From Selaginella tamariscina (lineage: Eukaryota > Streptophyta > Lycopodiopsida > Selaginellales > Selaginellaceae), in assembly GCA_003024785.1 (NCBI GenBank), contig PUQB01000285.1:248001-312000 (forward strand): a stretch of DNA of 64,000 bases, given 5' to 3'. Positions 34,619-57,022 of the stretch are shown here, in pieces. Each line of letters begins with the position of its first letter. Position 1 is the first letter of the stretch. The notes below the pieces were generated by a model. It did no database searches and was not told the origin of the DNA. It saw only the letters and a list, made by a program, of their open reading frames with translations. The position numbers and the translations under genes are program-made.

Positions 34619-34645
34619 ATGCAAGTTGTAACTAAAATGGGCATG
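34619..34645 (+). repeat. Left inverted repeat of the 22.4 kb candidate element
   Basis: 27 bp matching the reverse complement of 56996-57022 at 25 positions. It is preceded by AATG. Confidence 0.65.
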
Positions 34646-35215
34646 GCTATAGTCCCATTTCCTAATAATTAGCAATTTTTATTTAATTAGCATTTTCTAA
34701 TATTAAAGGAATATTCTTTAGAATATATGTTTGAAAAGAAATATTCTTTAGAATATTCTATTTTGTATTCTACCCTTTAATAAATTATAGCATTCATTGA
34801 ACAAAAATTAATAACATTATAAAAGTAGAATGTATTAAATTATATAATATATTGCCTAATATAACAATTAAGGAAGAGCATAAGAGGTACATTATATAAA
34901 TATTGATGTTGTTATTAAAATATTAATATTTAAATATAACATTATTAATTAAAAATTTGTAGTAGTAATAATATATATATAAAATCCTATAATAATATAG
35001 TCAATCTTCCATATTTTTTTAAATTTATATAGTTAAGTATACAATTTGGTACTATTATTAAAGAGTTTATAATAATTATGAATATTAAATATATGATATT
35101 TTATAATTTTGTAATTGCTTTAAGCTTCAGAAAACATACATTCCCTTGCAGTTTTGTTAATCGTGACTTTATCAACGCTTCTTGACATCCACCCATATCG
35201 AATGGATTTAACATT
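34646..35215. other. AT-rich subterminal region of the candidate element
   Basis: Non-coding, very AT-rich, with repeated GGAATATTC/AGAATATTC words (about 34706-34765). Similar words occur at 39960-40450 and near 56830-56860 by the other end. Confidence 0.5.
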
Positions 35216-38200
35216 TATAAAACATGCTGGGTCTTTTTGATTGGAGACCATGTTTTCTCTAGGCATCCATTATATCTTTCGCTCTCCTTCTCGTGTCGCC
35301 TTTTTTGTGGTTTGAACCATGCAACCTTAACAATACTATTTTTTGTGATTACTTCAGGTGTGTCGATAATTTGACCCATCCAAATAGGCTGATTATATGA
35401 CGCATCTGGAGTAATGAGAACCATCATTAGTTTTTGAAGATCCTTGCAGCAATCAAAGTATGCTTTAGGTTTTTGGTTCCTTTGTCCAACAAAGTGTGGG
35501 GTTTGCACTTCCACATCACTACTGGCTTCTATGTCGTCTGTGCTCAGTGATGTCATTTCAATCTCCTCTCGCCACCTTGTTTTAGGCCAAAAGGGTGTTG
35601 CAATTCTGTACTTGTGACAGTAGGCCCTTCCAACTCTCGAACAACAGTCTCCCAATAGTTGACCACATGCTTATATAGTTCTGAGTAACCAGTTGCCTTA
35701 TCAGAATTCTTTGGCATCGATTTTTGAACCCATGCCACATATTTTTTGATGCCATCAATAATAACCTCTTGTTCCTTGAGCTGGGCACTCAATGGAATAG
35801 GGTCTGGTTGTCCTTCTGGGAGAAGTGGCTTTCCATCCTCTCCACTTTTGAAGAGCATTAAGCCCTCTTTCGGTAACCACTCCTGCTCTGATGGCCGTAA
35901 CTTGTACTGCATAATAGGTATACCATCTCGTATGGAGAAAAAGAATTGTAGCGGCACAAGGTGACCAACTAAAGAATCACTCCCTTCTTTTATATACTCC
36001 TTGAGAAATTTTTTGAAGTCTGGCACCTCAGTCACAAGCAAAGCACAACTTTTTTTGGAGATGCAATTTTCAAAAAGATTCATCATATGCGGTAAGGTAA
36101 GTGCACTTGTCCTTTTTGTAGAGTTGGAGACCTTGCTGAAGAACGCATCAATATCTTCATGAGTGTGACCAACCATAAGGAAACTGAGCGTGATTGTTTC
36201 AAACACACCTTTGGCAACAAGCATTGACAAGTATGCTAGCACATATCTAGAAAATAAAAGTAAGTATGAGCTTGAGAAACCCTTAAGTAAAATGATTTAC
36301 CTATTTTTGTTCTCGCCTGCACAATTATCCATCTGTAAAAGCAAATGACGAGGAAGCTTATTTGATGTTGAGGACACATGTACACTATTTGAGCTAGATC
36401 CCTCCACTGAACCTGAACTCTCAACAGGGCCATCTGTTTTTTGTGCAGGTTGCTGACAATGCCTCTCATATTCCCAAGTAGCCTCAAGTGCAGACGTGTT
36501 CATGAGAGCATTATGTAAAGGTTGAAGGTGTTGTTTCTTCACTTTGAGATCACTGATAGGACTTGTCTGTGAGTGGGCTTCAAGGTTTCTGAAACACATG
36601 GCTAACGACCCAATAGTGAAATTGGAGTCGCTAGACCAATGTGGAAGTGAAAAGTGTCCATATGACTCACAACCGTGTCCATGTGTTAGCACACCTGTCA
36701 ATGAAATCGGAAGTTTCATGACATTTCCAAGGCACTTTGGTGTTGCAAAGAGCTTTGGAATGCTGGTCTTTGAATGATCCATCTTGTCATGGATCAAGCA
36801 CAGGTACTCTGATGGGCGTGACACAGAAAGCATGCGGTGTGCATAGTACTGAGACCGGCAAGTTTGTTGTGCAATCATGTGGGCCTCCATCTTCCTTTGA
36901 ATGGTAGTGATCTCCACCAAGGTTTTTGCACAAGCCTCTGCAGCCTTCAATGATGTACAAGTGTCACACTTAGAAAAGCTAGAGTGTTTTGCAATCTCCA
37001 CATCCTTAAAATGAGTATTCCATATGTTGTTGAAGGTACCAGTGCAGATTGCTTGGAGCCCCATCAAACTGAGGCACTTGTTCACATGTTCACACATTTC
37101 AATTGAGTGTAGATTGAAGGTAAAACCTTGAGATTTTCCCTGACCCCTGCATTTGTGGTTCGCATTTGTGATTTGTGAGGCATCCTGTCTGCATTTGCTT
37201 CCACAAAAGCCTTGAGTATCTCTATGGCTGCCATGATGTGAGAGCGGGTTTTGACCAAGCGAGTGTTCCCATGAACTGAGGTTCGCGCTCCATCTAGCCA
37301 CTCATCCCTCCGACGGTAGAACGTGGTCTTTGGGATCCCGTATATACTGTACCAAGCTTTGAAGCAGATGGCCACCTTATTAAATACCATGGATGTACTC
37401 TGATAACCTGTGTCCGAGGCCATTCCATCAATACACCCAGTTAGTGCAGCATATACAAACTCATGCCTTTGCTTTTGGGTGAGCATACGAAAGACATGTC
37501 TACATTGGGTAATTTCATTCCGGTCTGCCATCTGACAACACTTCTTCTGCAACAGTCAATCGTGGAAATGCTCGTAACACTTTCGGAAGATGTAGGATCC
37601 ATCTTTACCCTCTTGCTGAAACTTGCAGGGGAAGATCTACAACCCATGAATCGCCTTTTTCTTACAATAGGACCAATGCAAGGAACCTCTTCAAATATGA
37701 GTTGTTCTTCCGGGTTGTTATTATTGAAATCCAACCCAGAATATGTTGAACCATCTTGCCGTCTTAATTCAGATGTTCGCCACCTCACGAGGGATCCAGG
37801 ATACAATGTGCCATTAGGTGAAACCTCTGTCACAACTACACCCACGAAGTCGGACCCTAGTTTCTCTTCTGACACTGCTTCCATTGGATTTATAGCTGTG
37901 ATGATGCCTCTTCCGACTTCAATCTCACGAAGAAAGAGAATCACCTCATCCATCACAGCAGGCAAGCCATCATCTGGTAAACTCGTGCTACTATTTGTTT
38001 GTGACTCTGCATATTCTGTGTCAGCCTTGACTTCATCCAAATTCCACAATACAGGAGAACCCTCCTCAAATTCCATTCCCAGAACCTCAACATGCTTGTA
38101 AATGGTGTTCACCCATACGTACACACAAGATCCTTGGGCAATATTGTGACATGATGCATTATTATCTCGAACTTCCACAGTTCCAGTGCCAACTATCTCG

Positions 38201-38253
38201 TTGTTCCGAAGAAGACATACTTTATCTCCAGTATTAAACATATTGTCCTGCAC
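35216..38253 (-). CDS. DUF7869-type protein, candidate RNase H-fold transposase (frames broken)
   Basis: Minus-strand gene from ATG 38253 to stop near 35216. The N-terminal about 230 residues (FNTGDKVCLLRNNEIVGTG..., LYPGSLVRWRTSEL) are of unknown fold. A central segment carries FRMLTQKQRHEFVYAAL, IPKTTFYRRRDEWLDGAR and a KCDTC zinc-type motif after HSSFS. The conserved core has LIHDKMDHSKTSIP, LLQMDNCAGENKNR and SFLMVGHTHEDIDAFFS, the acidic signature of DUF7869 proteins, which suggests an RNase H-like fold. The C-terminus ends PIWMGQIIDTPE...VKVAWFKPQ. A 54-bp GT-AG intron (36247-36300) splits MDNCAGENKNR from YVLAYLSMLV. Frames change near 37500, 37090 and 35575, so it is either a pseudogene or affected by sequence errors. 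A divergent ParB-like gene lies beyond the palindrome arrays. A transposase role is inference. Confidence 0.7.
36247..36300 (-). other. Intron in the DUF7869-type gene
   Basis: On the minus strand AATAG|GTAAATCA...TTTTCTAG|ATATGTG. It joins the MDNCAGENKN-R codon across the junction and keeps the conserved core in frame. Confidence 0.8.
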
Positions 38254-38395
38254 ATAAATAATTGTATTATTTATGATATCTGTTTATGCAATATTTCTAA
38301 GAAATCTGAATTACGGTTACTTAATAATATGCATATGCAATAATACATAATTATGTTTAGAGATAATATCTCATGTTTGATTAATACAACTTGAT

Positions 38396-39240
38396 GGGCG
38401 GGATTAATCCCGCCCACGAATCCCTCCGACGAGGAACGGTCGGCGGGATTAATCCCGCCGCCGACTCAACCCCTTCGGAGAGAGTCGGCGGGATTAATCC
38501 CGCCTTGGACTCCCTCCGACAAGGAAGAGCCGGCGGGATTAATCCCGCCGACTCCTCCTCGGGGAGTCCGGCGGGATTAATCCCGCCGACTCTCCTCGGA
38601 GGAGTCGGCGGGATTAATCCCGCCGGACTCCCCCGTCGGAGAGAGTCGGCGGGATTAATCCCGCCTTGGACTCCCTCCGACAAGGAAGAGCCGGCGGGAT
38701 TAATCCCGCCGACTCTCTCCGACGAGGAAGGGAGTCCGGCGGGATTAATCCCGCCGACTCATCCTCGCCGGAGAGAGTCGGCGGGATTAATCCCGCCGGA
38801 CTCCCCCCGAGGAGGAAGAGGCGGCGGGATTAATCCCGCCGGCTCTTCCTTGTCGGAGGGAGTCCAAGGCGGGATTAATCCCGCCCACAATTCTTACGAC
38901 GGTGGCGGGATTAAACCCGCACATAACTCTCTCCAAAACTATGATTTCAAAGAGATCTCGGGATAAATCCTGTCCCCAAATCCTTAAAACAGGGATGTGG
39001 TGGCGAGATTAATCCCGCCACCCCTTCCCTGCCTCCTAAAATGGTTGGCGGGATTAATCCCGCCGACAACTCTTTCTAATAAATTCTGGTAACTCTTCAT
39101 CAGTTGAGAAGGTTATCGGCGGGATTAATCCCGCCACTCTTTTTCAGTGGCGGAGAAGCATTGCCCGAGAGATGGTGGCGGGATTAATCCCGCCACCTCT
39201 TCGAAGAGGCGAAAAAGAAATGGCCGGATTAATCCCGGCC
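38396..39240. repeat. Palindrome array 1 (GGCGGGATTAATCCCGCC), about 45-bp spacing
   Basis: Twelve exact 18-bp palindromes lie at centres near 38405, 38450, 38495, 38540, 38578, 38615, 38656, 38701, 38746, 38788, 38831 and 38876, i.e. every 37-45 bp, usually 45. Three more exact copies (near 39054, 39125 and 39185) and several decayed ones (near 38912, 38965, 39011 and 39231) follow. Spacers are built from GACTCCCTCCGACAAGGAAG-like words in both orientations, some themselves palindromic. The array lies about 140 bp upstream of the DUF7869-type gene start. Open frames through it (GGINPA/AGLIPP peptides) are by-products of the repeat. Confidence 0.9.
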
Positions 39241-39840: not shown

Positions 39841-39849
39841 ATATATACT

Positions 39850-42094: not shown

Positions 42095-42170
<76 letters not shown>

Positions 42171-43018: not shown

Positions 43019-44640
43019 AGCGGCGGGATTAATCCCGCCGCTATAGGTTTATGGCCTCGGCGGGATTAATCCCGCCGCTATATGGTTGGGGCCATGGCGG
43101 CGGGATTAATCCCGCCGCCGAGGCCCTTCACGCAGGCTATGGGCGGCGGGATTAATCCCGCCGCTCTAGGACAAACCGAAGAGCGGCGGGATTAATCCCG
43201 CCGCCCATGGCCTGCGTGAGGGGCCTCGGCGGCGGGATTAATCCCGCCGCTCACCCATGCCCTGCGCGGAATGCGGCGGGATTTATCTCGCCGGCAATGG
43301 CCTGTGTGAAGGCCCTAATGGCGGGATTAATCCCGGCGGATTCCGCGCAGGGCATTTACAGGGGATGGGCGGCGGGATTAATCCCGCCGCTCATGAGGCT
43401 AACCGAAGAGCCTGCATGAAAGATCCTGCACGGAAGGCTAACCGAAGAGCCTGCATGACATGTCCTGCGCGTAAGGCGGCGGGATTAATCCCGCCGCCCA
43501 GGGAATTCACGCAGGACATGAACGGCGGGATTAATCCCGCCCCACGCTCATGCCCTTCGCGGAGGGCGGCGGGATTAATCCCGCCGCTCAGGCACTTCCG
43601 CAGGATATAAGCGGCGGGATTAATCCCGCCCCCACCCATCCCTGTTCAAAATGCCGCAGCCAATATATATGTGTGAGCGCATGATTTACGAGAGGGCGGC
43701 GGGATTAGTCTCTCCGAACCTTCATTGCCCGGTGGCGGGATTAATCCCGCCACCCTTCTTTTTTCCTCCATTGGTATGTTGAATCAATCCCGACTAACTC
43801 TGTCTGAGACGGAGAAGGTTTACAAAATACCAATGGAGGGAACTGAGAAGGGTGGTGGGATTAATTTCACCATCCCTTACATGGTGGGCGGGATTAATCC
43901 CGCCGCGTACGCATGCCCTGCGCGGAATCGGGCGGGATTTATCCCGCCGCCATTGGCCTGCCTGAAGGGCCTAGGCGGCGGGATTAATCCCGCAAGATTT
44001 CGCACAGGGCATTGGCGTTCGGCGGGATTAATCCCGCCGACTAAGGCCCGAGTGAAGGGCCTGGGAGGCGGGATTAATCCCGCCGCGACGCAATTCCCTG
44101 GCGGAATCGGGCGGGATTTATCCCGCCGCCATTGGCCTGCCTGAAGTGCCTAGGCGGCGGGATTAATCCCGCCCGATTCCGCGCAGGGAATTGGCGTCCG
44201 GCGGGATTAATCCCGCCGCATAGGGACCGAGTGAAGGCCCTGGGCGGCGGGATTAATCCCGCCGAGTCTTCAATGCCTGTTGGAGGAATGAATCCCGCCA
44301 CCCTTCGCTTTTTTCTCCATTGGTGAGTCGGACCAATCCTAAACGTTTCTGTCTGAGACGTAGAAGGTTTTCAACATACCAATGGAGAGAATTGGGAAGG
44401 GTGGGGAAATTCATTTAACCATCCCTTACATGGTGGGCGAGATTAATCCCGCCCCCTTTCTGGAGTCACTGAAGGGGTGTGAGAAATAAATCCTGCCCAG
44501 TTCTCTCTGAGACCGAGAAGGGTGGCAAGATTAATTCCGCACTCCCGTTCAAGGCCTCCAGAAAGGTGGCGAGATTAATCCCGCCCACTCTTTCAGGAGG
44601 CATTGAAGGGGTGGCGAGATTAATCCCGCCGCACCTTCCA
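43019..44640. repeat. Palindrome array 2 (GGCGGGATTAATCCCGCC), about 45-bp spacing
   Basis: About nineteen exact palindromes, plus decayed ones. Early centres are near 43030, 43067, 43107, 43153, 43193, 43239, 43379, 43486, 43532, 43576 and 43621; later ones are near 43742, 43895, 44027, 44074, 44160, 44207 and 44253. Usual spacing is 37-46 bp. Spacers differ from array 1 (ATGGCCTGCGTGAAGGGCC, GCGCAGGGCATT words). A 170-bp module with inverted arms CTCCATTGGTA/TACCAATGGAG occurs twice (about 43741-43900 and 44290-44450). The array ends about 330 bp before the ParB-like gene start. Confidence 0.9.
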
Positions 44641-44973: not shown

Positions 44974-46997
44974 ATGGAGTCGTCGTCAAATTCTGGGTAA
45001 GAATTAAAATAAAATCTGTTATACTCGGATACTTGAACTAATCATTTTTGTATTCAGATGTGGAATTGAGGTGACATTAAAGACAAGAGCAGGAGAAGAG
45101 ATGGGCAGGGGGATTCTGGAATCAACTTGGCCATATTTTAAGATAAATGGGAAGCGCATTGGAGCAACCATGGCTGCTGTCAAATTAACCTCTGTCACAT
45201 CTCATGGACAAGCAAAACAATGGAAAGTAGATTCGCTAGTCAAGCACCCGAAAGCAGGCTGCGAACCCAGATTGGACGATTCTCGACACATATGCCTTGT
45301 TCCATCCAATGTCACGTTCTCGGATCCAGAGGTCGTCAGTTACAACATTAATTTCGGGTGGTTTTGTCGACTTGTGGATAATGACGTTCACGTGTTCACT
45401 AATGATGTTGACCTTGGAGTTCTTCTTCAACTCAACGAAAGCCCATCTATGGAGGGGATCCATCTGGATGTCTACTTCGAAAATCTTCAGACTCATCGAG
45501 TAGGTGTATTGTCAGGAGATATTGCTTCACAATACAGAAAATCAGCAAGTGAAGCAATCTTCCCTCTTCACATTGAAGAAGAACACAGCGACATCATAAT
45601 GGAGATTGAGAGGGTGGCTCGGTCTCAGGTTCTCTACAGATCACGTTCAATTTGCTTAGGGAGCTTTGGGAGCTGGAAGAGTGTACCGAGAACACTAGAA
45701 CAGCTGCAGTCGGGGATCACACATGTTGATTCGGATCGCAAAAGAAAATCATCAATCGTTTTGTCAGCTGCACCTGTGGCATCTCATGCTGCAATAAGTC
45801 ACAAGGAAATGATGTTGGATGATAAGATTTATCCTTGTAGGGTTAAATATTGCAGCGTCAACCCAAACTTCAATTACAGGCCACTCAACCAGGAACGTGT
45901 AGCTGAGCTCATGGAGAAGATGAAGGACGACAATTCTTATACCGTTCCACATAATGCTGTTTTGTGTCCATACTATGAAAGAAGGAAGGGCGCTGACAAA
46001 GTCTGGATCACAACACCAGAACAACTCATGAAGATTCAGACGGAGAATAGAAAATCTATCAAGTACTACATCATTAGTGGCCAGCACACAATAACGGCAG
46101 CCCAACGACTTCTCGATGAACACAACAAAGGAACGATGGCAACAAAACTTTCCGAGCATACCCGTGAGAAGCTGACAAAAAGATCGGCGTTTTTAGCTAA
46201 GCCGAATCTCACAATCGAGCAGTACCATAAGTTATCGGCGGAATGGGACGCTGCCGACACCAACCACTACAACAGCAAAATATGGGAGAAGTTTAAACAC
46301 ACGCGAGCCGTGTGGGAATCTCTTCAGCGACCACAAAGAGCTACCGCAGGAATACACAATCTGCGGAATACCGGGTAAGCAAATTGTTTGGGCGGGATTT
46401 ATCTCGCCGGTATATTAATCTGTCTTTTTCCTCAGAGAGTTGAAGAAATTGCAGCAGTTGATTTTGCCCAGGTGGGCGGGAAGGAAACATCCTTTCTGAT
46501 GATGTTGATTTCTTGCCCCGAAGATAATCTTTGCCAAATGGTTGGGGATTATGGAATCCTTTTCAAAAGGAACACTGAAGAAGAAGCAGACAAGTGAAGG
46601 GGAGCCCTCAGAAAAGTCTGCAAAGAAACCCAGTAAGACGCCGAAGGCTAAGTCTGTTCAATCTACAAAGGATGTAGACAACGATTTCAAGCTCACATGG
46701 TTGAAGCCTTTAAATGGAACAACGATGGAGGAGATGGAAGTCTTGGCTGATTTGGTGATCGATGGCAAACTACAAATTAATAACAGCAGCCCAACCTCTC
46801 CTTTTCATCTCAAGGCAATGGAGTTGAAGACGGTCAGGCATTTCAAGGAGTGGTTTGGGAATACACTGCCACAAACTGGGTTGGACCTCGACTTCAACAT
46901 ATGAAGAGGTCAGCAAATATTTGCATGTGACGAACGATGATATGCTTGTCGAATGGGTGAACCAATCGGAAGATCTGGGCAAGAATCTATTGCACGC
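44974..46997 (+). CDS. ParB/sulfiredoxin-domain protein, 5' part (split by retrotransposon)
   Basis: Exon 1 (44974-44996, MESSSNSG) joins exon 2 (45058-46374) through a GT-AG intron. Exon 3 starts about 46438. Residues about 8-250 have no family I recognise. From about 45835 a ParB-like core is visible: NPNFNYRPLNQERVAELMEK (box I-like) and YYIISGQHTITAAQRLL (box II-like, cf. GERRxxAA). In ParB/Srx proteins these bind DNA and nucleotide. A helical region (IEQYHKLSAEWDAADTNHY) and a Lys-rich linker (KKPSKTPKAKS) follow. A frame change lies near 46590. Coding runs into the Ty3/gypsy insertion at 46998 and resumes at 54227. The gene is divergent from the DUF7869-type gene with the palindrome arrays between. 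The domain call rests on motifs, not a search. Confidence 0.65.
46375..46437 (+). other. Intron of the ParB-like gene containing a palindrome copy
   Basis: GTAAGC...TTTTTCCTCAGAG. It carries GGGCGGGATTTATCTCGCC (46391-46409), a decayed copy of the array palindrome, so the motif is not confined to the two arrays. Confidence 0.65.
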
Positions 46998-47769
46998 TGT
47001 CACGGGAAAATTTGGACCATCACCTTGGTAGCCCCTGGTATGCATGTAGTGGACTAAGTCTTTTACTCGTATTATACTAGTCTTCTACTCGTATTATACG
47101 TCTACATTTCACTTTACTATTCACCTTCTTTGTCTTTTCTTGCATGGTCAAACTAGTCAACATTATTATGTTAATCCATATGATTATGCGCTGCTTTGAC
47201 CATGCACATTTTCTTTGTCTTCTTCCATGCAACCTTCCTAGTCACCTTCCAAGTCAAAGTCAAGTCACCCTCTTCCATAAACCCCCATCATTTATGGGTC
47301 AAGCCACCTTCTTCCATAACCCCAATCATTTATGGGTCAAGCCCACCTTCTTCCATAACCCCCTACCATTATTCTTATGTAACCCCATCTTACACCCTCT
47401 CTTACATCCCTACCCTACCCTACATGCATTCTTTATATTATTTGGGTATATAAGGAACCAAGGCTTAAGGGTTTCAGGAGAGAGGACACATATAGATATA
47501 GAGATATAGAAGAGAGTTCTCTAGTTTCTTCTTTTCTTTTCTTACTTTGTAAATAGTGTGTGATGACATTATTTTGTGTGTGCTCTTATGATGAAATATA
47601 AAAATTAGTTAGTGTATCTTTCGTGTCATGAGTTTCATCTCATATTTTCCCTTTCTTTTCTATTCTTTTATTCATGTGTGTGATCATTAGCAAGGACTAC
47701 TACGATGCGCTATCACTAAAGCCATCAAGTCCCGAAACATACGAGTCCCCGAATGATTTTCCTTCGACA
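46998..47769 (+). repeat. 5' LTR of the Ty3/gypsy element
   Basis: 772 bp. It contains TTCCATAACCCCCATCATTT tandem units (about 47268-47360; one fewer than clean copies in the 3' LTR) and a TATA box at about 47447-47455. Confidence 0.9.
47447..47455 (+). promoter_or_regulatory. TATA box of the 5' LTR
   Basis: TATATAAGG, with transcription expected about 30 bp downstream near the GGTTTCAGGAGAGAGG stretch. It is conserved in the 3' LTR near 53907. Confidence 0.6.
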
Positions 47770-47775
47770 TGTTTT

Positions 47776-47789
47776 TGGTGCGGTGAGCG
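47776..47789 (+). other. Primer binding site of the Ty3/gypsy element
   Basis: TGGTGCGGTGAGCG begins six bases after the LTR end. TGG fits a tRNA CCA end; the tRNA is not identified. Confidence 0.5.
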
Positions 47790-47811
47790 TGGATGCTAAT
47801 GTGCATTGTTT

Positions 47812-48126
47812 ATGAATGAGCCTGAGCGTCCTTTCTGGAGAAGGTTCTTTCAACTTTCAAGGTCTCTTCAAAATCAAATATTGAAGTGTTGTTTTGAGCA
47901 TCCACATGGGTTTGCTTTAAATAACAAGTTGGTGGTCATTCAAGCGTGGGGATTTGAAGAATTCAAGTTTGGAATACAACTTGCAATTGCGAATGTGCTT
48001 TTGAGGAGGCGAGAGGTGAATCGAGCATGGATCAAGATTTGGCACCCATGTGATAGTGGTGATATCGATGAGGCACACGTTTGTGTATGGATCTTCCATA
48101 CATTGATCCTCACATCGCAGTCGTGA
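47812..48126 (+). CDS. Unknown small ORF in the retrotransposon leader
   Basis: About 104 residues from ATG 47812, rich in W, R and hydrophobics (PFWRRFFQLSRSLQNQIL, WGFEEFKFGIQLAIANVLL, AWIKIWHPCD). It lies between the primer site and the extra RNase H. I know no family. It could be a real leader protein or a remnant of a gene acquired together with the RNase H. The minus strand is also open across it. Confidence 0.3.
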   Translation: MNEPERPFWRRFFQLSRSLQNQILKCCFEHPHGFALNNKLVVIQAWGFEEFKFGIQLAIANVLLRRREVNRAWIKIWHPCDSGDIDEAHVCVWIFHTLILTSQS

Positions 48127-48232
48127 CAATATCTCGATGGATTCATCCAAGTCTTTGGGAATCTTGTGGAGTGTGGAGTTTGGTGAAGCAAGAGTATTGC
48201 GCGCGTTGTGAGAGGTTCGGTTGTGCTTGTTA

Positions 48233-48688
48233 ATGTGGCAAGTCAACTTTGATGGAGCATACAAGCCAAAGAAGCAAGTTGCGAGTGTAGGGGTCGTGCT
48301 AACTGATCCAGTAGGGAAGCGAATCAAAATTTCTGAGCCAACTTCTAGTGCTAATTCTTGCAATCAAGCGGAGTATTCTGCATTGATTCGAGGATTGAAG
48401 GAGGCAAGGAAACAAGGAGCGAAAAACGTGGTTGCGATTGGTGACTCTAAGTTGGTGGTGAACCAAGTGCAAGGTCAGTGGAAAGTGAGAAAGCCTGAGT
48501 TGTTGGTGCTTTCTGAGCGTGTTCAAGATCTCAAAAGGGGATTCGACACTTTTGAGATAAAGCACGTTCCTCGAAGAGAGAATCTAGAGGCTGACGAGCT
48601 TGCACAGAGGGGGGCATTGCCTCGTCAAAGTGACGTCTCTTCATCTACTTGTAATCAGGTGAAACCTTTGCCATTTTTACACTTGTAA
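48233..48688 (+). CDS. Extra RNase H domain upstream of gag (RVT_3-like)
   Basis: 151 residues with a complete RNase H tetrad: D7 in NFDGAYK, E47 in NQAEYSAL, D71 in AIGDSKLVV and D121 in LEADELA, plus HVPRREN before the last Asp. This is the plant/archaeal-like 'RVT_3' RNase H pattern, not the Ty3 pol-linked type. It cleaves RNA in RNA-DNA hybrids. It ends TAA two bases before the gag ATG (48691), in a different frame. Position ahead of gag is unusual; captured RNase H domains in plant Ty3/gypsy elements that I know of lie within or after pol. Probably an acquired domain serving minus-strand template removal. Confidence 0.8.
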   Translation: MWQVNFDGAYKPKKQVASVGVVLTDPVGKRIKISEPTSSANSCNQAEYSALIRGLKEARKQGAKNVVAIGDSKLVVNQVQGQWKVRKPELLVLSERVQDLKRGFDTFEIKHVPRRENLEADELAQRGALPRQSDVSSSTCNQVKPLPFLHL

Positions 48689-48690
48689 AG

Positions 48691-49239
48691 ATGGTGTCTA
48701 TTCCAGTATATCATGGTCTGCAAAATGAGGATGCAGATCGGTATTTACGTTCATTTAAGCGAGCATGCATTTCGAATGGAGATAGAAGTTCTACCACTTG
48801 GGCAGAACTTCTACCATCCTTTTTGGAGGATGGAGCATTGAAGTGGTTTGAACGTCAAACTAGTGATGTTAAGGCTAGTTGGGAGAGGTTGAGTGAGGCT
48901 TTTCTAGGAGAGTATGGAAAGCCAGAGACATTGGATGAGGTCATGAAGCAATTGGATCAATTGAGGCAAAGTGAAGAAGAGAGTGTCAAGGCATTCAGTG
49001 AGCGTGTGTTGGAACTCCAATGTAAGCTACGAAGTGGTTTGGGAGTGGAGGCCTCCGAAGGACAGGAGGATGCATCCAAGGAGTCCAAACCAGCTGTGGG
49101 GATAGATGCATTGGTGTTCAACAAGTTTCTTACTGGATTGAAGCCGGTATTACGCCAGAAGGTAAAGAACAAAGAGCCTAGTAACTTGCAGGAAGCTGTG
49201 AAGATTGCTATGAAAAAGGAGGCACTTCTCATGGATTGA
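48691..49239 (+). CDS. Gag (capsid part)
   Basis: 182 residues with the retrotransposon gag pattern: ADRYLRSFKRAC, WAELLPSFLEDGALKWFERQ, SWERLSEAFLGEYG, SVKAFSERVLELQCKL, FLTGLKPVLRQKV and LQEAVKIAMKKE. It forms the particle shell. It stops at 49239. The nucleocapsid and protease continue in another frame from about 49240, so either a frameshift or a sequence indel separates them. Confidence 0.85.
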   Translation: MVSIPVYHGLQNEDADRYLRSFKRACISNGDRSSTTWAELLPSFLEDGALKWFERQTSDVKASWERLSEAFLGEYGKPETLDEVMKQLDQLRQSEEESVKAFSERVLELQCKLRSGLGVEASEGQEDASKESKPAVGIDALVFNKFLTGLKPVLRQKVKNKEPSNLQEAVKIAMKKEALLMD

Positions 49240-50190
49240 TGAAGCCTCAATCTCAACGTAGCACCACAACCAAGGTTGGCACCAATTCTACAAACACCCC
49301 AAGTTGTGATTCCTGCAACCGTTCCAGTCAAATCATCTGAGTTGGAGAGTAGTATTGCCAAATTAACTTCAGATCTCAACGAACTCAAGTTGCATTTGCT
49401 TCAAGCAAAGCCAACAGGACCAAAACCTCCAAGGCCACCTAGGGATCGAGCTAATGTCACTTGTTACATTTGTAAACAACAAGGTCACTATGCCACTGAA
49501 TGTCAACAACCACGACCACAGGTGACATGTTTTACATGTAAACAGGTGGGACACTATGCAAATGAGTGTCCTCAGAAACCTCAATCAACTCCTGCACCAC
49601 AACAGAGGGACCAACCTAGTGTTCATTTGGTGGAGTTAACAACCGAGCAAGGTGACTTGGATCTCTTAGGTCTTAAGAGAGCCAGAGGGGAGCAACAAGT
49701 GGAGCAACCTGAACAAGTGGAGACACGTGCAAGCAAGAAGAAAAGGAAGGAAGGTACCAAGCCACGACGTAAGGTTGGTATACAGGATATGGGGATTGGC
49801 AAGGGGCAGAAGGAATATTCAATTGTCGAGGATCTAGGAGATACTCGTGCCAACATTACAGTTGCACAATTATTGTCAAAATGCCCAAGCTTGAGGAGAG
49901 AGCTTCGACAAGGGATTAGTACTCGTGCAAAGAAGGTACGTCCTAGTGGTGAGGATGAGGTGATGCGAAATGTACAAGTGATAACAAGAGAATCCAATAC
50001 GAATGCCGTGGCACCAATTGTGGATGTGGTAGTAGATGGAATACGTGTGCAACGTGTTTTAGTAGATGGTGGTGCAGAGATCAATGTCATGAGTAGCTGG
50101 TTGATGGAGAAACTTGGTCTCAAGTGCAACCAACCATCGAATTGGAGGATTAGGGTGGCCGATGATCGACGTGTCAAGCCAGTGGAATGA
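49240..50190 (+). CDS. Gag nucleocapsid (two CCHC knuckles) and protease
   Basis: Two intact CCHC knuckles, CYICKQQGHYATEC and CFTCKQVGHYANEC, follow a Pro-rich linker. A Lys/Arg-rich linker (RASKKKRKEGTKPRRK) and a helical segment (ITVAQLLSKCPSLRRELRQ) precede a protease core RVLVDGGAEINVMSSWLMEKLGL, where the usual D-[ST]-G-A reads D-G-G-A, as in many plant gypsy elements. It ends at 50190, overlapping the next frame (ATG 50187) by four bases. Confidence 0.85.
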
Positions 50191-51776
50191 TTATTGACTT
50201 GCCGATCACAGTGCACGGGATAACTACCTCTATAGATGTGCATGTCATGCAACTACGACGGGATGCACATGGTTATCCTATGATCTTGGGTCGACCTTGG
50301 CTTTATAAGGTTGATGCTAAGAATTATTGGAAAAAGGGGGAGATGACTATTGGTCATAAGTCAAGACGAGTGACAATAGCCATCAAGGAGAACACAACAA
50401 AGGTTGTAGATGAGGAGTCATCTTCCAGTGAGGAATATGATTCTAGCAGTAATAGTGAGGTGACAACCTCAGATTCTGAGAGTGAGCAAGAGGAGAAGGA
50501 ATTGTATGCCCTCAAGGCGATTCCTAAGGTTGCTACGCGTGTGGAGCCTCACGATAGACATGAGGTCTATGATCAACAACTCACCCAGGAGCAGGAGGCT
50601 CAAGGAGGGGTAGTAGGGGTTGTTGAAAAGGGGCAGGAAGCAAGTAGTGGCAACAAGTTTGAGGCAAAGGAAGTGGAGCGACGAGCTCTTTTGGAGAAGA
50701 TGCTTAGTTCAAGTTTGACTCCTGAGGAGAAGGAGCAATACATGAGCATGCTATTGAAGTTCCCCAAGTTGTTTGCGACATCATATGAGGAGCTTCGTCA
50801 AGTAGATATTGTGCAACATGAGATCCCACTTAAACCAGGTATGAAGGGAGTTGCACAAAAGGCTTATAGGATGGGTCCTTTGAAACAGAGCATAGTTTAT
50901 GAGGAGCTCATGAAGCTACAGCGTTCGGATTTCATTTTTAAGGTGGAAACGTCAGATTGGGTTTCTCCTGTGGTGGTAGCCCCAAAGAAAAATGGTAAGT
51001 GGCGAGTTTGTGTCAACTTCAAACGATTAAATGATGGCACACATCGAGATCATCACCCCATTCCTTTCATGGATGAGATACTGGATGAAGTGACAGGGCA
51101 TGAGATGTACACATTTTGTGATGGGTACTCTGGGTATTTCCAAGTCAGGATTCGAGAAGAGGACCAACTGAAGACTACCTTCACCACACCATGGGGAACC
51201 TTTGCGTATAGGGTGATGCCGTTTGGACTCACAAATGCTCCAGCAACGTTTCAACGATTGATGAACAAGGTGTTTGAACCATATCTTGGTTCATTCATTA
51301 GGGTTTACCTCGATGACTTTTGCATCTATAGCGATAGGATGAGCCACTTGGAGAAGGTACAACTAGCATTCCAAAGGATGGATGATGCAAAAGGATGCTT
51401 GAACCCGGAAAAATGTCAGATTGGTAGTACTAAGGGCACCTTAGTAGGACATGTGATCTCAAAGGATGGCATTGAGCCAAGTCAAGACAAGGTGGACAAG
51501 CTACTCATGTTGCCAACTCCGACTTGTGTCAAGGAGGTACGAAAGTTTGTAGGGTTGGCAGGGTACTATCGTAGATTTGTGGAGGGATTTGCAGAGATGG
51601 CATATCCATTGAACCAGCTACTTCGTAAGGGAGTTGCATTTCAATGGACTTCTTCATGCCAAGCATCATTTGAGAGGCTTAAGATCGCACTAAGTTCACA
51701 TCCGATTTTGGTGGCACCTAAATGGGAGAGTTATTTTATGTCAATCTCAGCGTTGGAGAAGTTTCAATCACTGTGA
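50187..51776 (+). CDS. Ty3/gypsy protease end and reverse transcriptase
   Basis: 529 residues. PMILGRPWL marks the end of the protease. An acidic Ser-rich linker (SSSSEEYDSSSNSEVTTSDS) follows. RT blocks are clear: SDWVSPVVVAPKKNGKWRVC, FCDGYSGYFQVRI, VMPFGLTNAPATFQRLMN, the catalytic FIRVYLDDFCIYSD, LVGHVISKDGI and VRKFVGLAGYYRRFVEGFA. All three catalytic Asp are present. The frame ends early in the RNase H region, where the reading frame shifts. Confidence 0.9.
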   Translation: MIIDLPITVHGITTSIDVHVMQLRRDAHGYPMILGRPWLYKVDAKNYWKKGEMTIGHKSRRVTIAIKENTTKVVDEESSSSEEYDSSSNSEVTTSDSESEQEEKELYALKAIPKVATRVEPHDRHEVYDQQLTQEQEAQGGVVGVVEKGQEASSGNKFEAKEVERRALLEKMLSSSLTPEEKEQYMSMLLKFPKLFATSYEELRQVDIVQHEIPLKPGMKGVAQKAYRMGPLKQSIVYEELMKLQRSDFIFKVETSDWVSPVVVAPKKNGKWRVCVNFKRLNDGTHRDHHPIPFMDEILDEVTGHEMYTFCDGYSGYFQVRIREEDQLKTTFTTPWGTFAYRVMPFGLTNAPATFQRLMNKVFEPYLGSFIRVYLDDFCIYSDRMSHLEKVQLAFQRMDDAKGCLNPEKCQIGSTKGTLVGHVISKDGIEPSQDKVDKLLMLPTPTCVKEVRKFVGLAGYYRRFVEGFAEMAYPLNQLLRKGVAFQWTSSCQASFERLKIALSSHPILVAPKWESYFMSISALEKFQSL

Positions 51777-52100
51777 TCCTGATGCAGAAGGGGAGAAGCG
51801 GATACTTGTTTCCATTTATTATGCAGGAAGGCAATTACAAGGGCCAGAGCTCAACTACCCATTGTTGGAGAAGCAAGCAGCAGCAATCATATATGCAGTG
51901 GAGAAGTTCAAGCATTACTTGTGGGGGCGCCACTTTGTTTTCCTCATCAACAATGCAACACTTAAGTACATTGCCAATAAGCCTGGGCTCACAGGGAAGT
52001 TTTCTAGGTGGATCACGACCTTGGCTGAGTATGATTTTGAGTTTCAACATGAGAAGAGCACAAGAGCGGGTTTAGCAGAAATGTTGGACCAAGGTGACAT
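51722..52100 (+). pseudogene. Pol-linked RNase H domain lacking catalytic acids
   Basis: It follows RT in a shifted frame: FYVNLSVGE stands where Ty3 RNase H has xxTDAS, LEKQAAAIIYAVEKFKHYLW keeps the Glu, FVFLINNATLKYIANK stands for the usual TDHxxL, and RAGLAEMLDQ for the ADxLSR end. At least two, probably three, of the four metal-binding acids are replaced. Together with the intact RNase H ahead of gag this suggests the domain is now a structural tether. A frame change at about 51800 complicates the reading. Confidence 0.65.
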
Positions 52101-52239
52101 TGAGAAGTTCCATTATCTTTTGGAAGTTTGTGCTCTTTCACCCGACATGGAGGATTATCAAGAAGTCTACAATTTCTTGATGGATGGGAAGTTTCCAGAA
52201 GGATGTACAACAACCCAGAAGAAGACGATCATGCGACAA

Positions 52240-53060
52240 TCTCGACCTTATATGGTAATGGGTGAGTTACTTTATAGGATAGGGCGAGATGGTGTGCTTC
52301 GACGAGCGGTGGGTCGTCAGGAGAGAAAACAGATCATGGAGCAATGCCATGAAGGATTTTGCGGTGGACACTTCTCACACGACTACACTTCCAAGAAGAT
52401 AGTCAATGCAGGATATTATTGGCCGACCCTCTTCAAGGATGTTAAGGAGTGGTGTCGGACTTGCCAGGTTTGTCAGACTTTTGGAAGAAGAGTGTGTACA
52501 AGGGACCTTTGCATCCTATTTTACCAACAGGTCCATTTGAGAAGTGGGGAATAGACTTTGTTGGTCCCTTGCCAGTGGCTTCTTCACAAAAGAGATACAT
52601 TATTGTGGGTACTGACTATCTAACGAGGTGGGTGGAAGCAGTCTCTGTTCGAGCTTGTACCAAGGAGGTCGCAACAAATTTCATCATCCAGAACATTGTC
52701 ACCAGGTTTGGGTGCCCATTAGAGATAGTAACAGATCAGGGTTCTCATTTCTGCAATGAAGTGGTGGAGCTTCTTCTTTCTCAATTGTCCATCACACGGC
52801 GACAATCAACAAGTTATTACCCTCAAGCTAATGGACTGGTGGAACGAACAATGGAGTGTTGTGCAATATATTAGCTAAGCTTGCGGTGGATCATAAGAAG
52901 GATTGGGACAAGTGGTTACCAGCAGCACTTTGGGCTTTCAGGACAACACACAAAGTTGCTACCAGGTACACACCATTTCAATTAGTTTATGGTATAGAAG
53001 CAATACTCCCAATTGAGCTGGAATACCAAGCTTGCGTCTAGCATTGAAGCATGGGCTTGG
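52240..53060 (+). CDS. Integrase (zinc finger and DDE core), frames broken
   Basis: HHCC zinc finger: CHEGFCGGHFSHDYTSKKI...GYYWPT...WCRTCQVCQ. The DDE core follows in other frames: GIDFVGPLPVA (D), IVTDQGSHFCNEV (D), and SYYPQANGLVERTME (E). Then WDKWLPAALWAFRTTHK and ATRYTPFQLVYG. It inserts the cDNA. Frame changes occur near 52480, 52860 and 53040. Confidence 0.85.
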
Positions 53061-53396
53061 AGATGGTGAGGACTTGCAAGCAAGGTTGGTTCAGTTGGAG
53101 AGCATGGATGAATCACGAAGACAAGCCTTGCAACTTGTGGAGCAATGCAGCAGAAGTGGAAGGCCAAATTCGATAAGAAGATTCGAGAACGACCACTCAG
53201 GTGGGTGATTTAGTGATGCGATATGATAGTCGATTGGATAAGACCTTCTCAAAGAAGTTCTTACCAAGATGGGATGGACCTTTCATCATTGTGGAGGTTT
53301 ATAAGAATGGGTCATATCTTTTGCAAACTTGGATGGAGAACAGCATGGCACACGGGTTAATGGTTACAGGTTGAAGCGCTTTCATGTTCGACAGTA
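53061..53396 (+). pseudogene. Integrase C-terminal GPY/F-like module, frames broken
   Basis: VGDLVMRYDSRLDKTFSKKF, then LPRWDGPFIIVEVYKNGSYLL matches the GPY/F module of Ty3/gypsy integrases, and RLKRFHV ends the protein near 53396. No chromodomain is seen. Confidence 0.7.
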
Positions 53397-53438
53397 GCTA
53401 TGAGTTTTCAAACAACCCGCATCGCGTGGCAATGCGTG

Positions 53439-53456
53439 TTGTTTGGGTGGGATTTA
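53439..53456 (+). promoter_or_regulatory. Polypurine-like tract before the 3' LTR
   Basis: TTGTTTGGGTGGGATTTA abuts the LTR start TGTCACGG at 53457. G-rich core GGGTGGGA. Confidence 0.5.
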
Positions 53457-54226
53457 TGTCACGGGAAAATTTGGACCATCACCTTGGTAGCCCCTGGTAT
53501 GCATGTAGTGGACTAGTCTTCTACTCGTATTATACTAGTCTTCTACTCGTATTATACGTCTACATTTCACTTTACTATTCACCTTCTTTGTCTTTTCTTG
53601 CATGGTCAAACTAGTCAACATTATTATGTTAATCCATATGATTAGTGCCTGCTTTGACCATGCACATTTTCTTTGTCTTCTTCCATGCACCTTCCTAGTC
53701 ACCTTCCCAAGTCAAAGTCAAGTCACCCTCTTCCATAACCCCCATCATTTATGGGTCAAGCCCACCTTCTTCCATAACCCCCATCATTTATGGGTCAAGC
53801 CCACCTTCTTCCATAACCCCCTACCATTATTCTTATGTAACCCCCATCTTACACCCTCTCTTACATCCCTACCCTACCCTACATGCATTCTTTATATTAT
53901 TTTGGGTATATAAGGAACCAAGGCTCAAGGGTTTCAGGAGAGAGGACACATATAGATATAGAGATATAGAGAAGAGTCTCTAGTTTCTTCTTTTCTTTTC
54001 TTACTTTGTAAATAGGTGTGATGACATTATTTTGTGTGTGCTCTTATGATGAAATATAAAAATTAGTTAGTGTATCTTTCGTGTCATGAGTTTCATCTCA
54101 TGTTTTCCCTTTCTTTTCTATTCTTTTATTCATGTGTGTGATCATTAGCAAGGACTACTACGATGCGCTATCACTAAAGCCATCAAGTCCCGAACATACG
54201 AGTCCCCGAATGATTTTCCTTCGACA
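53457..54226 (+). repeat. 3' LTR of the Ty3/gypsy element
   Basis: 770 bp, nearly identical to 46998-47769. It is followed by ACGC, matching 46994-46997. Confidence 0.9.
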
Positions 54227-55311
54227 ACGCCAACGCCAAAAGGAGAACATTGGGATGACGCCTTCTCTTATGGCAGTCCTTCAGCAGCGGAGAACCGAAT
54301 TGAACCTTATAAAGGAGGATGCTACAAATCACGACAAGCCCTACGATGTTTGTTGTTAGATTCGGAGACTTTATGGGGTAACATCACTGCTTGTAGGAAA
54401 CCGTTTCAATTGTTCGTGATGGATCGGCGGGTGTCAAAAATCTTTCGACAGATAGGGACTAGAGGATCTGGTGGAGAAACTTAGCCGTGCAAGCATATAC
54501 ATAGAAGGTATTTATTATTGAATTCATGCTTGCGCTCTCATTGATACCTACTTTTTCAGGTATTTATTTCTTGATTCTTTGCTCATGTCACCGATACTTT
54601 TGCCTTCACCTTCGCCAAGAAATAGACATCGTTGGACAGGATTTTATATGAACGATGCTATCCCAAGTGCATTGATACCGTTGTTCACTTGGTTGTTAGG
54701 AATGCGCCAAATAATTTCAAGCTTCCAAATGACTGGCCAGGCATCTGTTTGCACTCCAACGGCCCTGAACCTCCATCCGATACACCGATAGGTATGAAGT
54801 GACGTATTCGACAATGTACGTTATCCAAACATTACAAGTCAAGCGGCACGGAGCATCGTCAACTTGATTAGGGGTCCTCACAGTGATGCGTGGGTTTTTG
54901 ACTACTGCACTAGGGGTCCGTCTTGAAGGAGTGTTACCTTCGGCATACATGTGTGTTTGCCGTTGAAAAGGATAAGACCATGGTTGAGGACCTGAACAAG
55001 TGGATAGATTGGGTCTCAACTGAGTACCCCAACGATTCCATAAAGGCGTATTTGAGAAAGTTCCCTCCAGATAAGTGCGATAGCTCTGAAGGTGAATCTG
55101 GTTCAATCTCGGAGTCTGAGAATGAACTTCAATCAGATATTAGACCGGAAGTTATCTCGAGAGTACAGAACATTCGCACACTCCAGGACCCATGGAAACA
55201 TCAATAGAAGATGCAGAAGATCTTGAACCATCTCACAAGCGGCTTAGACCTTCTTCGCCTCACTCAGAAGGTAATAGCGAAGAAGAATTGATAATGAATT
55301 GATAGAGTGAC
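54227..55311 (+). CDS. ParB-like gene, 3' part after the insertion (possible methyltransferase-like end)
   Basis: Coding resumes at the insertion site: GEHWDDAFSYGSPSAAENRI, LFVMDRRVSKIFRQIG and VEKLSRASIYIEG. After a GT-AG intron (about 54515-54559) come YLFLDSLLMSPILLPSPSPR, RWTGFYMNDAIPSALIPLF and NNFKLPNDWPGICLHSNGPE. After another intron or frame change come FDNVRYPNITSQAARSIVNL, DAWVFDYCTRG, ECYLRHTCVFAVEKD and LNKWIDWVS. It ends with an acidic tail, SHKRLRPSSPHSEGNSEEEL. AWVFDYCTRG...CVFAVEKD loosely resembles motif I-II of a SAM-dependent DNA methyltransferase, as in phage ParB-methylase fusions. I see no DPPY motif, so that is speculative. Several frame changes occur. Confidence 0.5.
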
Positions 55312-55589: not shown

Positions 55590-56418
55590 AAATGGATAAT
55601 AATGCAGCTCAAAACATCGTTACCATGGGGGCCACTTCATCATCATTTTTATTGGCTTCAGTTCCGAAATTAATTTCTTCAGCGCATGCAATATCTGAAT
55701 CTTGTAAGGATGATGTACAATTAAATGATGAAGGGATAGGCAACGAGATAGTGGCAACGATAAAAGTGAAAGGGAGCAAACAAGTGATTTGCAAAGTATT
55801 CAAGAGGCAACGCCATCTCATGTTACTCATGGCCATATTGTGTTGTTGGATGTCAATGGTGTTCTGCTTCATCGACAAAGGCCCCAGGATAGAAAAACAG
55901 AAATCAAACAAGGAGATTTCATTCCTTGTCATGGTAAATTTCGATATGATATTATTTTTCGTCCAGGGTTGGATCGTCTCTTTCAAAAGCTTAAGGAGAT
56001 GGGTGCGCTTGTGGGGATTTGGTCATGCATGCAGATTCATAACTTAACACCGCTGTTGAGTTTACTTAAGAAACATTGTAGTGTTGCAGAAGAGGTGATT
56101 CGTAAAGATTGGATTTTTGACCAGCGAATGTGTCATAAACCTCTCGAATTTCAGAATATAAGAAAGGAAAGCAAGCCATACTTCTTCAAGAATGAAAGAA
56201 TAATTGGGACTCATGGGGAGATCAGTCGCTTAAGGATAATGAAGAATGCACAGATGTTTAGTAGTAGACGACTCTCCTCAGAAGGCTATGCTCAACCAAA
56301 CATTGCTTGTATTCATCCAATCACTTTCGATCCATATTCTGATACCGATATCATGGATGAGCTAGTGAACTACTTGGATACGTGCCTCAGAAAAGAAGAA
56401 TCTCGAAAATTTTTGTGA
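55590..56418 (+). CDS. FCP1-like HAD phosphatase domain protein
   Basis: The clear part is 55789-56418. HIVLLDVNGVLLHRQRP is the HAD nucleophile motif with DxN in place of DxD, as in some plant FCP1-like proteins. Then comes FRPGLDRLFQKLKEMG and VGIWSCMQIHNLTPLLSLL (motif II region, normally WTSxxxxN), a basic middle (HKPLEFQNIRKESKPYFFKN) and the end DPYSDTDIMDELVNYLDTCL. FCP1-type enzymes dephosphorylate Ser residues on protein partners such as RNA polymerase II. The Asn substitution may reduce activity. An N-terminal acidic, Ser-rich stretch lies in an overlapping frame (55583-55790). It may be cargo of the 22.4 kb element or a host fragment caught in it. Confidence 0.65.
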
Positions 56419-56995
56419 GCAGTATCCACCGATCATACATTTCCTGAAGCTTTTCTTTCTCGTGATATTAAATTTTATAAAATGAAGGATAGCAACGGGC
56501 GCTTTATAATATTATTCTTAAGGAACGTCAGTTTTTAGATGAGCCTTTATGCAGACCTTCTCTTATCACATCTTATGTATTAACAAGGATGGCAACTCCC
56601 AATTGCATTCGTGAGAGTGTTAAGTGGTGGCAACAACATCAAGATATTGACCAAAATGATTTGAATTAATCCGGAGAGTGATGATTTAGACAAAATGAAA
56701 AGATTTCTTTGTATGATAGAAAGAAAGTATTTATAAAAATTAACATGTTGATAAGAAATGATTTCATTTGTAATTATGTTTGATAGTATTTCTTCATTAT
56801 TGTAAACTATTTTTAGAATAATATGAATATTTTAAGATATTTTAGGAATATTCCTTACTAAGTAAGGTTATTAAAGGATTAATTAATTAATTAATTAATA
56901 TTTAAGGCTTAATTACATATTAATTAAATGATTAATTAATAATTAAAACTTAAGTATTAATTAGTAATTTATTTTATATTCCCATTTTCACGTAT
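56419..56995. other. AT-rich end of the candidate element
   Basis: Possible frame-shifted tail of the phosphatase gene (EQYPPIIHF at about 56416-56445). Then very AT-rich DNA with TTAATTAA runs and GGAATATTCC (56850-56860) before the right inverted repeat. Confidence 0.45.
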
Positions 56996-57022
56996 CATGC
57001 CCACTTTAGTTACAACGTGCAT
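56996..57022 (-). repeat. Right inverted repeat of the 22.4 kb candidate element
   Basis: CATGCCCACTTTAGTTACAA... is the inverted partner of 34619-34645. It is followed by AATG. Confidence 0.65.

What the first reader, a model, noticed from the sequence alone, without database searches (positions are those of the whole stretch)
34619..57022. ParB-like protein encoded beside dozens of perfect palindromes: a parS-like system in a plant mobile element?
The plus-strand gene from 44974 carries box I-like (NYRPLNQERVAELMEK) and box II-like (IISGQHTITAAQRLL) ParB/Srx motifs. The 6.7 kb separating it from the divergent DUF7869-type gene holds two arrays with more than 30 exact copies of GGCGGGATTAATCCCGCC, and one decayed copy lies in the gene's own intron. 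Bacterial ParB binds short palindromes (parS) and spreads. I see the motif nowhere else in the 64 kb. A ParB-fold protein acting on its own palindrome array, for transposition, silencing or segregation, would be new to me in plants.
Basis: partly seen in the sequence, partly recalled or inferred. Interest (0 to 1): 0.9.

Follow-up and report, generated by a model that had tools for sequence, protein, structure and literature searches.

The report
Plant transposon with self-linked palindrome arrays
The palindromes belong to an abundant, recently multiplied plant jumping gene that also carries a protein gene conserved alongside them, which looks like a transposon bringing its own switch and docking sites, although neither the ParB kinship nor the binding has been proven.

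Summary
The window has 47 matches (at most 3 mismatches; 0.01 expected) to GGCGGGATTAATCCCGCC: 46 in two arrays, one in an intron of the ParB-like gene. All lie in one DNA transposon, 34619-57022, with 26-bp terminal inverted repeats and a 4-bp target duplication, split by a nested LTR element. The genome holds 27,128 exact palindromes and 4,444 terminal-repeat matches. Of the 11 palindrome clusters among the first 100 listed sites, 10 lie beside the ParB-like gene and/or the transposase gene; one shows neither. A family about 47% identical in protein keeps a sibling array with a changed core. The gene is under purifying selection (dN/dS 0.20-0.31). The transposase is DUF7869; 4-bp duplications and invariant acidic sites fit Sola. 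ParB homology is not shown: no profile, PDB or database search found it, and structure prediction never ran. An Ectocarpus Sola1 element is reported to carry a ParB-like/methyltransferase gene opposite its transposase (PMC12477816). Best reading: the protein binds its own arrays to control or protect the element, like Arabidopsis VANC. Segregation is unlikely. Binding is inferred.

The parts
34615..34618 (.). left target-site duplication AATG
   Evidence: read; the same AATG at 57023-57026. 9 of 18 end pairs (17 elements) elsewhere have an exact 4-bp duplication, against 0.65% for mismatched pairs
34619..34644 (+). left terminal inverted repeat (transposase side), ATGCAAGTTGTAACTAAAATGGGCAT
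   Evidence: 4,444 matches in the genome at 3 mismatches or fewer, control 0
35215..38241 (-). DUF7869 transposase gene, ATG ending at 38241; broken in this copy by frame breaks near 37301 and 36296 (the 3' end of the gene is approximate)
   Evidence: Pfam PF25273; ATG position; 105 relatives; 150 of 150 scored copies of its first 227 aa are 100% identical
38397..39239 (.). palindrome array 1: 18 copies (15 exact), 156 bp upstream of the transposase start codon
39240..43021 (.). AT-rich spacer with microsatellites and AAACCCT-type repeats between the arrays; no gene recognised
   Evidence: the two arrays are also 3.35-3.64 kb apart (last site to first site) in the 4 further copies where both lie in one locus
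43022..44630 (.). palindrome array 2: 28 copies (18 exact), ending 344 bp upstream of the ParB-like start codon
44974..46374 (+). ParB-like accessory gene, exons 1 (44974-44996) and 2 (45058-46374); exon 2 holds the NYRPLNQERVAELMEKM and YYIISGQHTITAAQRLL motifs
   Evidence: exon 2 dN/dS 0.20-0.31 between subfamilies; 88 of 96 scored copies have no stop inside the match. Most copies match only to residue 431 of 439, so this copy differs from them by an indel near the end of exon 2
46391..46408 (.). palindrome variant inside intron 2 of the ParB-like gene
   Evidence: sites also lie after exon 2 in L078 and between exons 2 and 3 in the L021 relic
46438..46997 (+). exon 3 of the ParB-like gene up to the nested element (acceptor 46436 or 46438, not settled; frame broken in this copy, exon 3 open in L069 and L070)
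46998..54226 (+). nested Ty3-type LTR retrotransposon inserted in exon 3; LTRs of about 775 bp, 97.7% identical
54227..55304 (+). rest of exon 3 and exon 4 of the ParB-like gene
   Evidence: reading frame in L069-L071
55732..56415 (+). NIF/FCP1-like phosphatase ORF near the right end
   Evidence: Pfam PF03031 E 2.4e-8; matched in the 5 C1 copies examined; no clear constraint
56997..57022 (-). right terminal inverted repeat; its reverse complement ATGCACGTTGTAACTAAAGTGGGCAT differs from the left one at 2 of 26 positions
57023..57026 (.). right target-site duplication AATG

Best explanation
The thing is a recently amplified, Sola-like DNA transposon of about 13.6-15 kb with three gene units: a DUF7869 transposase, a divergently placed ParB-like accessory gene, and a phosphatase-like ORF. 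Shown: the transposon's structure, the palindrome arrays just upstream of both main genes and in the accessory gene's intron, conservation of gene-plus-array across diverged families, and selection on the accessory protein. Inferred: the accessory protein binds the palindrome, probably as a dimer, and loads onto the arrays. There it acts as the element's own regulator, most likely keeping both promoters and the element free of host silencing, as VANC proteins do for VANDAL transposons.
For: Motif sharply bounded: 1.3-1.96 bits inside the 18-mer and at most 0.43 bits outside, in 221 instances. Arrays lie next to both gene starts (156 and 344 bp) and not at the ends: 3.8 kb from the left end and 5.2 kb from the right end without the nested element. 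10 of 11 clusters lie beside one or both of the two genes. A family with a protein about 47% identical has 11 sibling sites, mostly with an ATTTAT/ATAAAT core, before exon 2 and 2 more after it, none in the reversed sequence; steps of 45 bp recur. Accessory exon 2 dN/dS 0.20-0.31 at dS 0.12 in four comparisons. At least 150 copies share an identical transposase N-part, so the family multiplied recently despite whatever silencing the host has. VANC21 targets are also short motifs in tandem repeats, in introns and upstream of VANA21, and related families use different motifs (PMC5735166, passages).
Against: No binding data. No recognisable DNA-binding domain by any library search. Motif and gene travel on one element, so their association alone does not show that one binds the other; the transposase could be the binder. 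One array (C1, about 2070.6-2072.5 kb) has no match to the accessory gene or transposase in the fetched DNA on either side. The divergent-family evidence rests on two damaged loci (L078, L021).
Confidence: 0.5

Rival explanations
1. The palindromes are binding sites of the DUF7869 transposase, used for autoregulation or complex assembly, and the accessory protein does something else.
For: Array 1 lies 156 bp upstream of the transposase start. Two of 11 clusters showed only the transposase in the stretch fetched. The transposase N-terminal half has a weak Transposase_23 (TNP1/En/Spm) match, E 0.099, below cut-off.
Against: Sites are not terminal or subterminal (3.8 and 5.2 kb from the ends). 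They extend into the accessory gene's introns in two families. Two of 11 clusters showed only the accessory gene in the stretch fetched.
Confidence: 0.2
2. The palindromes are docking sites for a host transcription factor, making the arrays promoters or enhancers without an element-encoded binder.
For: Arrays flank both gene starts. The core contains inverted TAATCC, which resembles some homeodomain sites (recalled, not tested). One array stands without either gene in the fetched DNA.
Against: Conservation over 18 bp is long for a host site (inference); the sibling family changed the core.
Confidence: 0.13
3. The accessory protein marks the element's own DNA: a ParB-like plus methyltransferase enzyme, as proposed for the algal elements.
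For: The Ectocarpus Sola1-1 product is reported as ParB-like plus N4mC/N6mA methyltransferase on the strand opposite the transposase (PMC12477816). By eye the C-terminal part resembles a degenerate methyltransferase (DRRV where DPPY, DYCTRGS where DxFxGxG would stand; motif names recalled).
Against: No methyltransferase in Pfam, NCBIfam or PDB searches. Profile comparison with 6 methyltransferases gave probability 0.08, below at least the 8 best of 30 shuffled controls. Expected catalytic residues absent by eye.
Confidence: 0.08
4. The arrays are passive tandem repeats, spread only because the element spread.
For: 27,128 copies in a recently multiplied family; tandem repeats arise easily; one array stands without genes in the fetched DNA.
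Against: The motif stays constant while the spacers between units diverge. Motif and 45-bp steps recur in a family whose protein is about 47% identical.
Confidence: 0.07
5. A parS-like partition system: ParB-like protein and palindromes segregate an episomal form of the element.
For: Formal likeness to clustered palindromes next to a ParB-like gene.
Against: No ParA in the ORFs scanned; chromosomal insertions with 4-bp duplications; no ParB profile match.
Confidence: 0.02

Closest known systems
Sola1-1_Ec32 of Ectocarpus (PMC12477816; passages seen)
   Same: Giant DNA transposon with a long accessory gene on the strand opposite the transposase, called ParB-like there; 21.5 kb against about 13.6-15 kb here.
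   Different: The Ectocarpus protein is described with a methyltransferase domain, not detected here. No word beginning with palindrom occurs in that paper's main text. Direct sequence comparison was not possible.
VANDAL transposons and VANC anti-silencing proteins of Arabidopsis (PMC5735166; abstract and passages)
   Same: Element-encoded accessory protein; short motif in tandem repeats in introns and upstream of genes; motif and protein differ between related families.
   Different: VANDALs are Mutator-type as I recall; the motif there is 9 bp (YAGTATTAY), not an 18-bp palindrome. VANC binding and demethylation are experimental facts; here they are inference.
Sola superfamily DNA transposons (PMC10741241 passage; Physcomitrella Sola1 in a table of PMC9033089)
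   Same: 4-bp target duplications; invariant acidic positions; size over 15 kb allowed; known in a moss.
   Different: No Sola transposase sequence was available for comparison; palindrome arrays are not mentioned in the passages seen.
Bacterial ParABS
   Same: Box I/II-like motifs by eye; clustered palindromes near the gene.
   Different: No ParA in the ORFs scanned, no ParB profile match, no partition context; the GERRxRA-type motif (recalled) reads GQHTITA here.
En/Spm (CACTA) TnpA with subterminal repeats (recalled)
   Same: Repeated short motifs in a plant transposon with an accessory protein.
   Different: Here the arrays are internal, next to the gene starts; duplications are 4 bp.

Membership tests
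Sola superfamily | 4-bp target-site duplication | tested here: met
   9 of 18 end pairs from 17 elements, 0.65% for mismatched pairs, no other length or register above 1; also the window and 2 of 4 further elements with both ends
Sola superfamily | DDD-type transposase | tested here: inconclusive
   15-sequence alignment: invariant D365, D406 and D408, nearly invariant D212 and D215. Fold and catalysis not tested
Sola superfamily | sequence similarity to a known Sola transposase | not testable with these tools
   No Sola sequence or model was at hand; the only family match above its cut-off is DUF7869
ParB/Srx domain | profile match to ParBc or another ParB model | tested here: not met
   No match in Pfam, NCBIfam or PHROGs (one family of unknown function at E 0.21)
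ParB/Srx domain | ParB/Srx fold | not tested
   Structure prediction was never accepted (queue of 100 jobs, 17 attempts)
ParABS partition system | ParA ATPase encoded nearby | tested here: inconclusive
   Pfam scan of 8 element ORFs showed none; not every ORF was scanned
ParABS partition system | ParB binds the palindrome | not testable with these tools
   Needs experiment
ParB-methyltransferase accessory proteins of algal transposons | N6/N4 methyltransferase domain | tested here: not met
   none; profile comparison probability 0.08, on shallow alignments. The search of the whole genome with PF01555 did not complete
ParB-methyltransferase accessory proteins of algal transposons | gene opposite in strand to the transposase in a Sola-like element | tested here: met
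   Window and 5 of 5 C1 copies examined carry the two genes in divergent arrangement
VANC-type anti-silencing | tandem motif arrays in non-coding parts of the element that differ between related families | tested here: met
VANC-type anti-silencing | protein binds the motif and removes methylation | not testable with these tools
   Needs experiment

The most novel reading that the evidence does not exclude
A land-plant transposon has taken a bacterial-type ParB-like clamp protein and evolved its own dense arrays of matching palindromes next to both promoters and in an intron. The protein loads at the arrays and spreads along the element to exclude silencing, and protein and site diverge together between families: an anti-silencing system with VANC-like logic built from unrelated parts.
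Probability: 0.18. Interest if true: 0.85.

Novelty: new variant of a known kind. Interest (0 to 1): 0.6.

Why it matters
How plant transposons escape silencing is known in detail from one system, VANC (recalled). A second, apparently unrelated system with an exact 18-bp palindrome, thousands of sites and at least 150 near-identical copies would let protein-site coevolution be tested directly, and would link land plants to the unexplained ParB-like genes of algal transposons.

Tried and rejected
ParB by sequence: no support in Pfam, NCBIfam or PHROGs, in PDB by phmmer and by profile, or in 5.8 billion proteins by the 499-aa reading and by a 3-row alignment (no hit at E 1e-3 and at E 1). The same database gave 105 relatives of the transposase, moss and liverwort proteins among them, so plant proteins are in it. 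No palindrome pair and no relative in IMG/VR; no match in phages.

Degenerate methyltransferase: seen by eye, not supported by profile comparison; kept only as a lead.

Segregation (parS): rejected for lack of ParA in the ORFs scanned and of any episomal evidence. Passive satellite: disfavoured. End-recognition repeats of the En/Spm kind: disfavoured because the arrays are internal.

Paper searches behind statements on print: in a library that lacks most subscription journals. The 18-mer occurs in none of the held papers. No land-plant ParB-like transposon gene showed in those listings; that is not proof of absence. Bao 2009 (Sola) and Iyer 2011 were not held.
Full report
WHAT IS THERE. The palindrome GGCGGGATTAATCCCGCC matches the window 47 times at three mismatches or fewer, 33 exactly; shuffles give 0.01. 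The copies form array 1 (38397-39239, 18 copies), array 2 (43022-44630, 28 copies) and one intron copy (46391-46408).

THE ELEMENT. On contig C1 the same ends bound elements of 14.8 kb (796442-811239), 13.6 kb (917618-931173) and 13.6 kb (1804054-1817694); a fourth (2072811-2087177) has a variant end, and for a fifth (near 904 kb) only one end was found. The window copy is 22.4 kb because a Ty3-type retrotransposon (46998-54226; LTRs 97.7% identical) sits in the accessory gene; without it, 15.2 kb. For 18 end pairs from 17 other elements, 9 have an exact 4-bp duplication at the repeat edge; mismatched pairs agree 0.65% of the time and other lengths or registers give at most 1. Of the window and the four C1 elements with both ends, three show it (window, 917k, 1804k) and two do not (796k, 2072k). 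About half of the ends thus lack a duplication; I did not find out why. The end repeat matches 4,444 times in the 300.7-Mb genome at three mismatches or fewer, control 0. If all were ends of full elements, which is not shown, this would be roughly a tenth of the genome.

GENES. The minus-strand gene (ATG ending at 38241) is a DUF7869 protein (PF25273, E 4.4e-27). The protein database holds 105 relatives, among them proteins of Riccia, Physcomitrium, Ceratodon and Calypogeia and of several animals. Across 15 sequences D365, D406 and D408 are invariant and D212 and D215 nearly so, as in an acidic-triad transposase. 150 of 150 scored genome copies of its first 227 residues are 100% identical to the window's, many in open frames of 660-680 codons (4,941 first-look candidates, only the best scored): a recent burst. 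The divergent gene has exons 44974-44996, 45058-46374 and 46436/46438 onward, with a third intron in copies L069-L071. The product would be about 1,000 residues; this is inferred, since in no single fetched copy did I establish a frame open to the end. 88 of 96 scored copies of exon 2 have no stop inside the match (6,566 first-look candidates, only the best scored). Between subfamilies exon 2 has dS 0.12 and dN/dS 0.20-0.31 in four comparisons (two close copies gave 0.48 and 0.56 on few changes), so the protein has been kept. A phosphatase-like ORF (PF03031) near the right end showed no clear constraint.

LINK OF PALINDROME AND GENE. The genome has 27,128 exact palindromes and none of the reversed control. 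The first 100 listed sites, all on C1, fall into 11 clusters, all now fetched at least in part. Six (near 8.6-13, 800, 904, 923, 1809 and 2078 kb) lie between the accessory gene and the transposase gene. Two (130 and 2057 kb) showed the accessory gene, two (178 and 319 kb) the transposase gene, in stretches too short to show both sides in each case. One (2071 kb) is against the pattern: about 16 sites at four mismatches or fewer, three of them of the form GGCCGGATTAATCCGGCC, with AT-rich DNA weakly like the window's spacer, and no match to any element gene in the 6.8 kb fetched before the neighbouring element or the 4.8 kb after that element. It may be a worn or gene-less relative; I did not settle it. 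So 10 of 11 clusters lie beside one or both genes. Across 221 instances in the window and seven loci the 18 positions hold 1.3-1.96 bits and the flanks at most 0.43; instances were chosen at four mismatches or fewer, which favours the inside, but the flanks between neighbouring units are free to vary and do. Spacing is mostly 44-46 bp.

A SIBLING SYSTEM. A damaged family represented by L078 encodes a protein about 47% identical to the window's exon 2. The DNA before its exon 2 holds 11 sites of the form GGCGGGAT-WW-ATCCCGCC at five mismatches or fewer, mostly with TTTA or TAAA cores, again with 45-bp steps, and two more lie after exon 2; the reversed sequence has none. A second relic (L021, 1817694-1820999) has 7 against 0. 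The exact ATTTAT form occurs 1,572 times in the genome (777 and 795 on the two strands), but several listed sites lie in arrays of the main family, so this number does not measure the sibling.

IS IT ParB? By eye the quoted motifs fit box I and box II of the ParB/Srx fold. No computation supports it: no Pfam, NCBIfam, PHROGs, PDB or database match. Structure prediction was never accepted. [quoted passage not shown] The length, position and element type fit. The C-terminal half here looks by eye like a worn-out methyltransferase, but profile comparison with six methyltransferases gave probability 0.08, below at least the 8 best of 30 shuffled controls, and Pfam, NCBIfam and PDB found nothing.

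MECHANISM. Arrays sit 156 bp upstream of the transposase start and 344 bp upstream of the accessory start, and sites occur in the accessory introns; they are 3.8 and 5.2 kb from the ends. This is the layout of a regulator, not of end recognition. VANC21 of the Arabidopsis VANDAL21 transposon binds a short motif in tandem repeats, found in introns and upstream of VANA21 (the transposase gene, as I recall), methylation is lost there, and VANC6 has another motif (PMC5735166, abstract and passages). Of 419 distinct palindrome instances, the commonest substitutions are C to T and G to A (position 14 46 times, position 5 34 times), as expected if the arrays have been methylated, though shared descent inflates these counts. 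I therefore favour a self-encoded array-binding regulator that counters silencing (0.5). Binding, spreading and demethylation are inferred.

PLACE AMONG KNOWN THINGS. Works like: VANC-VANDAL. Member of: probably Sola (4-bp duplication met; triad consistent; direct comparison not possible). ParB: unproven. The ParB-like accessory idea is published for algae; the palindrome arrays, their conservation with the gene, and the land-plant case are what is new here as far as the searches listed can tell.

Noticed in passing
window 46998-54226: Ty3-type LTR retrotransposon nested in the accessory gene, LTRs 97.7% identical, coding region split over several frames.
   Followed up: partly
window 12713-30555: Several kilobase-long stretches repeated directly and inverted at 90-98% identity, with 68-bp tandem repeats; looks like nested LTR elements.
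   Followed up: no
window 55732-56415: NIF/FCP1-like phosphatase ORF carried near the right end of the element in the window and the 5 C1 copies; no clear selection.
   Followed up: partly
window 40835-40862 and 41370-41406: Telomere-like AAACCCT repeats inside the spacer between the palindrome arrays.
   Followed up: no
window 45059-46372 against 35556-38283: dS between subfamilies differs by gene: about 0.12 in the accessory exon, up to 0.07 in the transposase, up to 0.03 in the phosphatase ORF, which suggests mosaic elements formed by recombination.
   Followed up: partly
L022-L056: 8 of 17 elements with clean end repeats lack a matching 4-bp duplication.
   Followed up: no
L016, C1 2070604-2072485: A palindrome array without either gene in the fetched surroundings, with several sites of the form GGCCGGATTAATCCGGCC; a worn, gene-less or differently coded relative.
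   Followed up: partly
palindromes of fetched loci: C-to-T and G-to-A changes dominate, strongest at the inner C of CCG, hinting at past CHG and CG methylation of the arrays.
   Followed up: partly
window 37444-38283 (-) and 45059-45200 (+): The N-terminal parts of transposase and accessory protein look alike by eye (GRGI...G...V) and may share a Transposase_23-like domain; the Pfam match of the transposase part is below cut-off.
   Followed up: no
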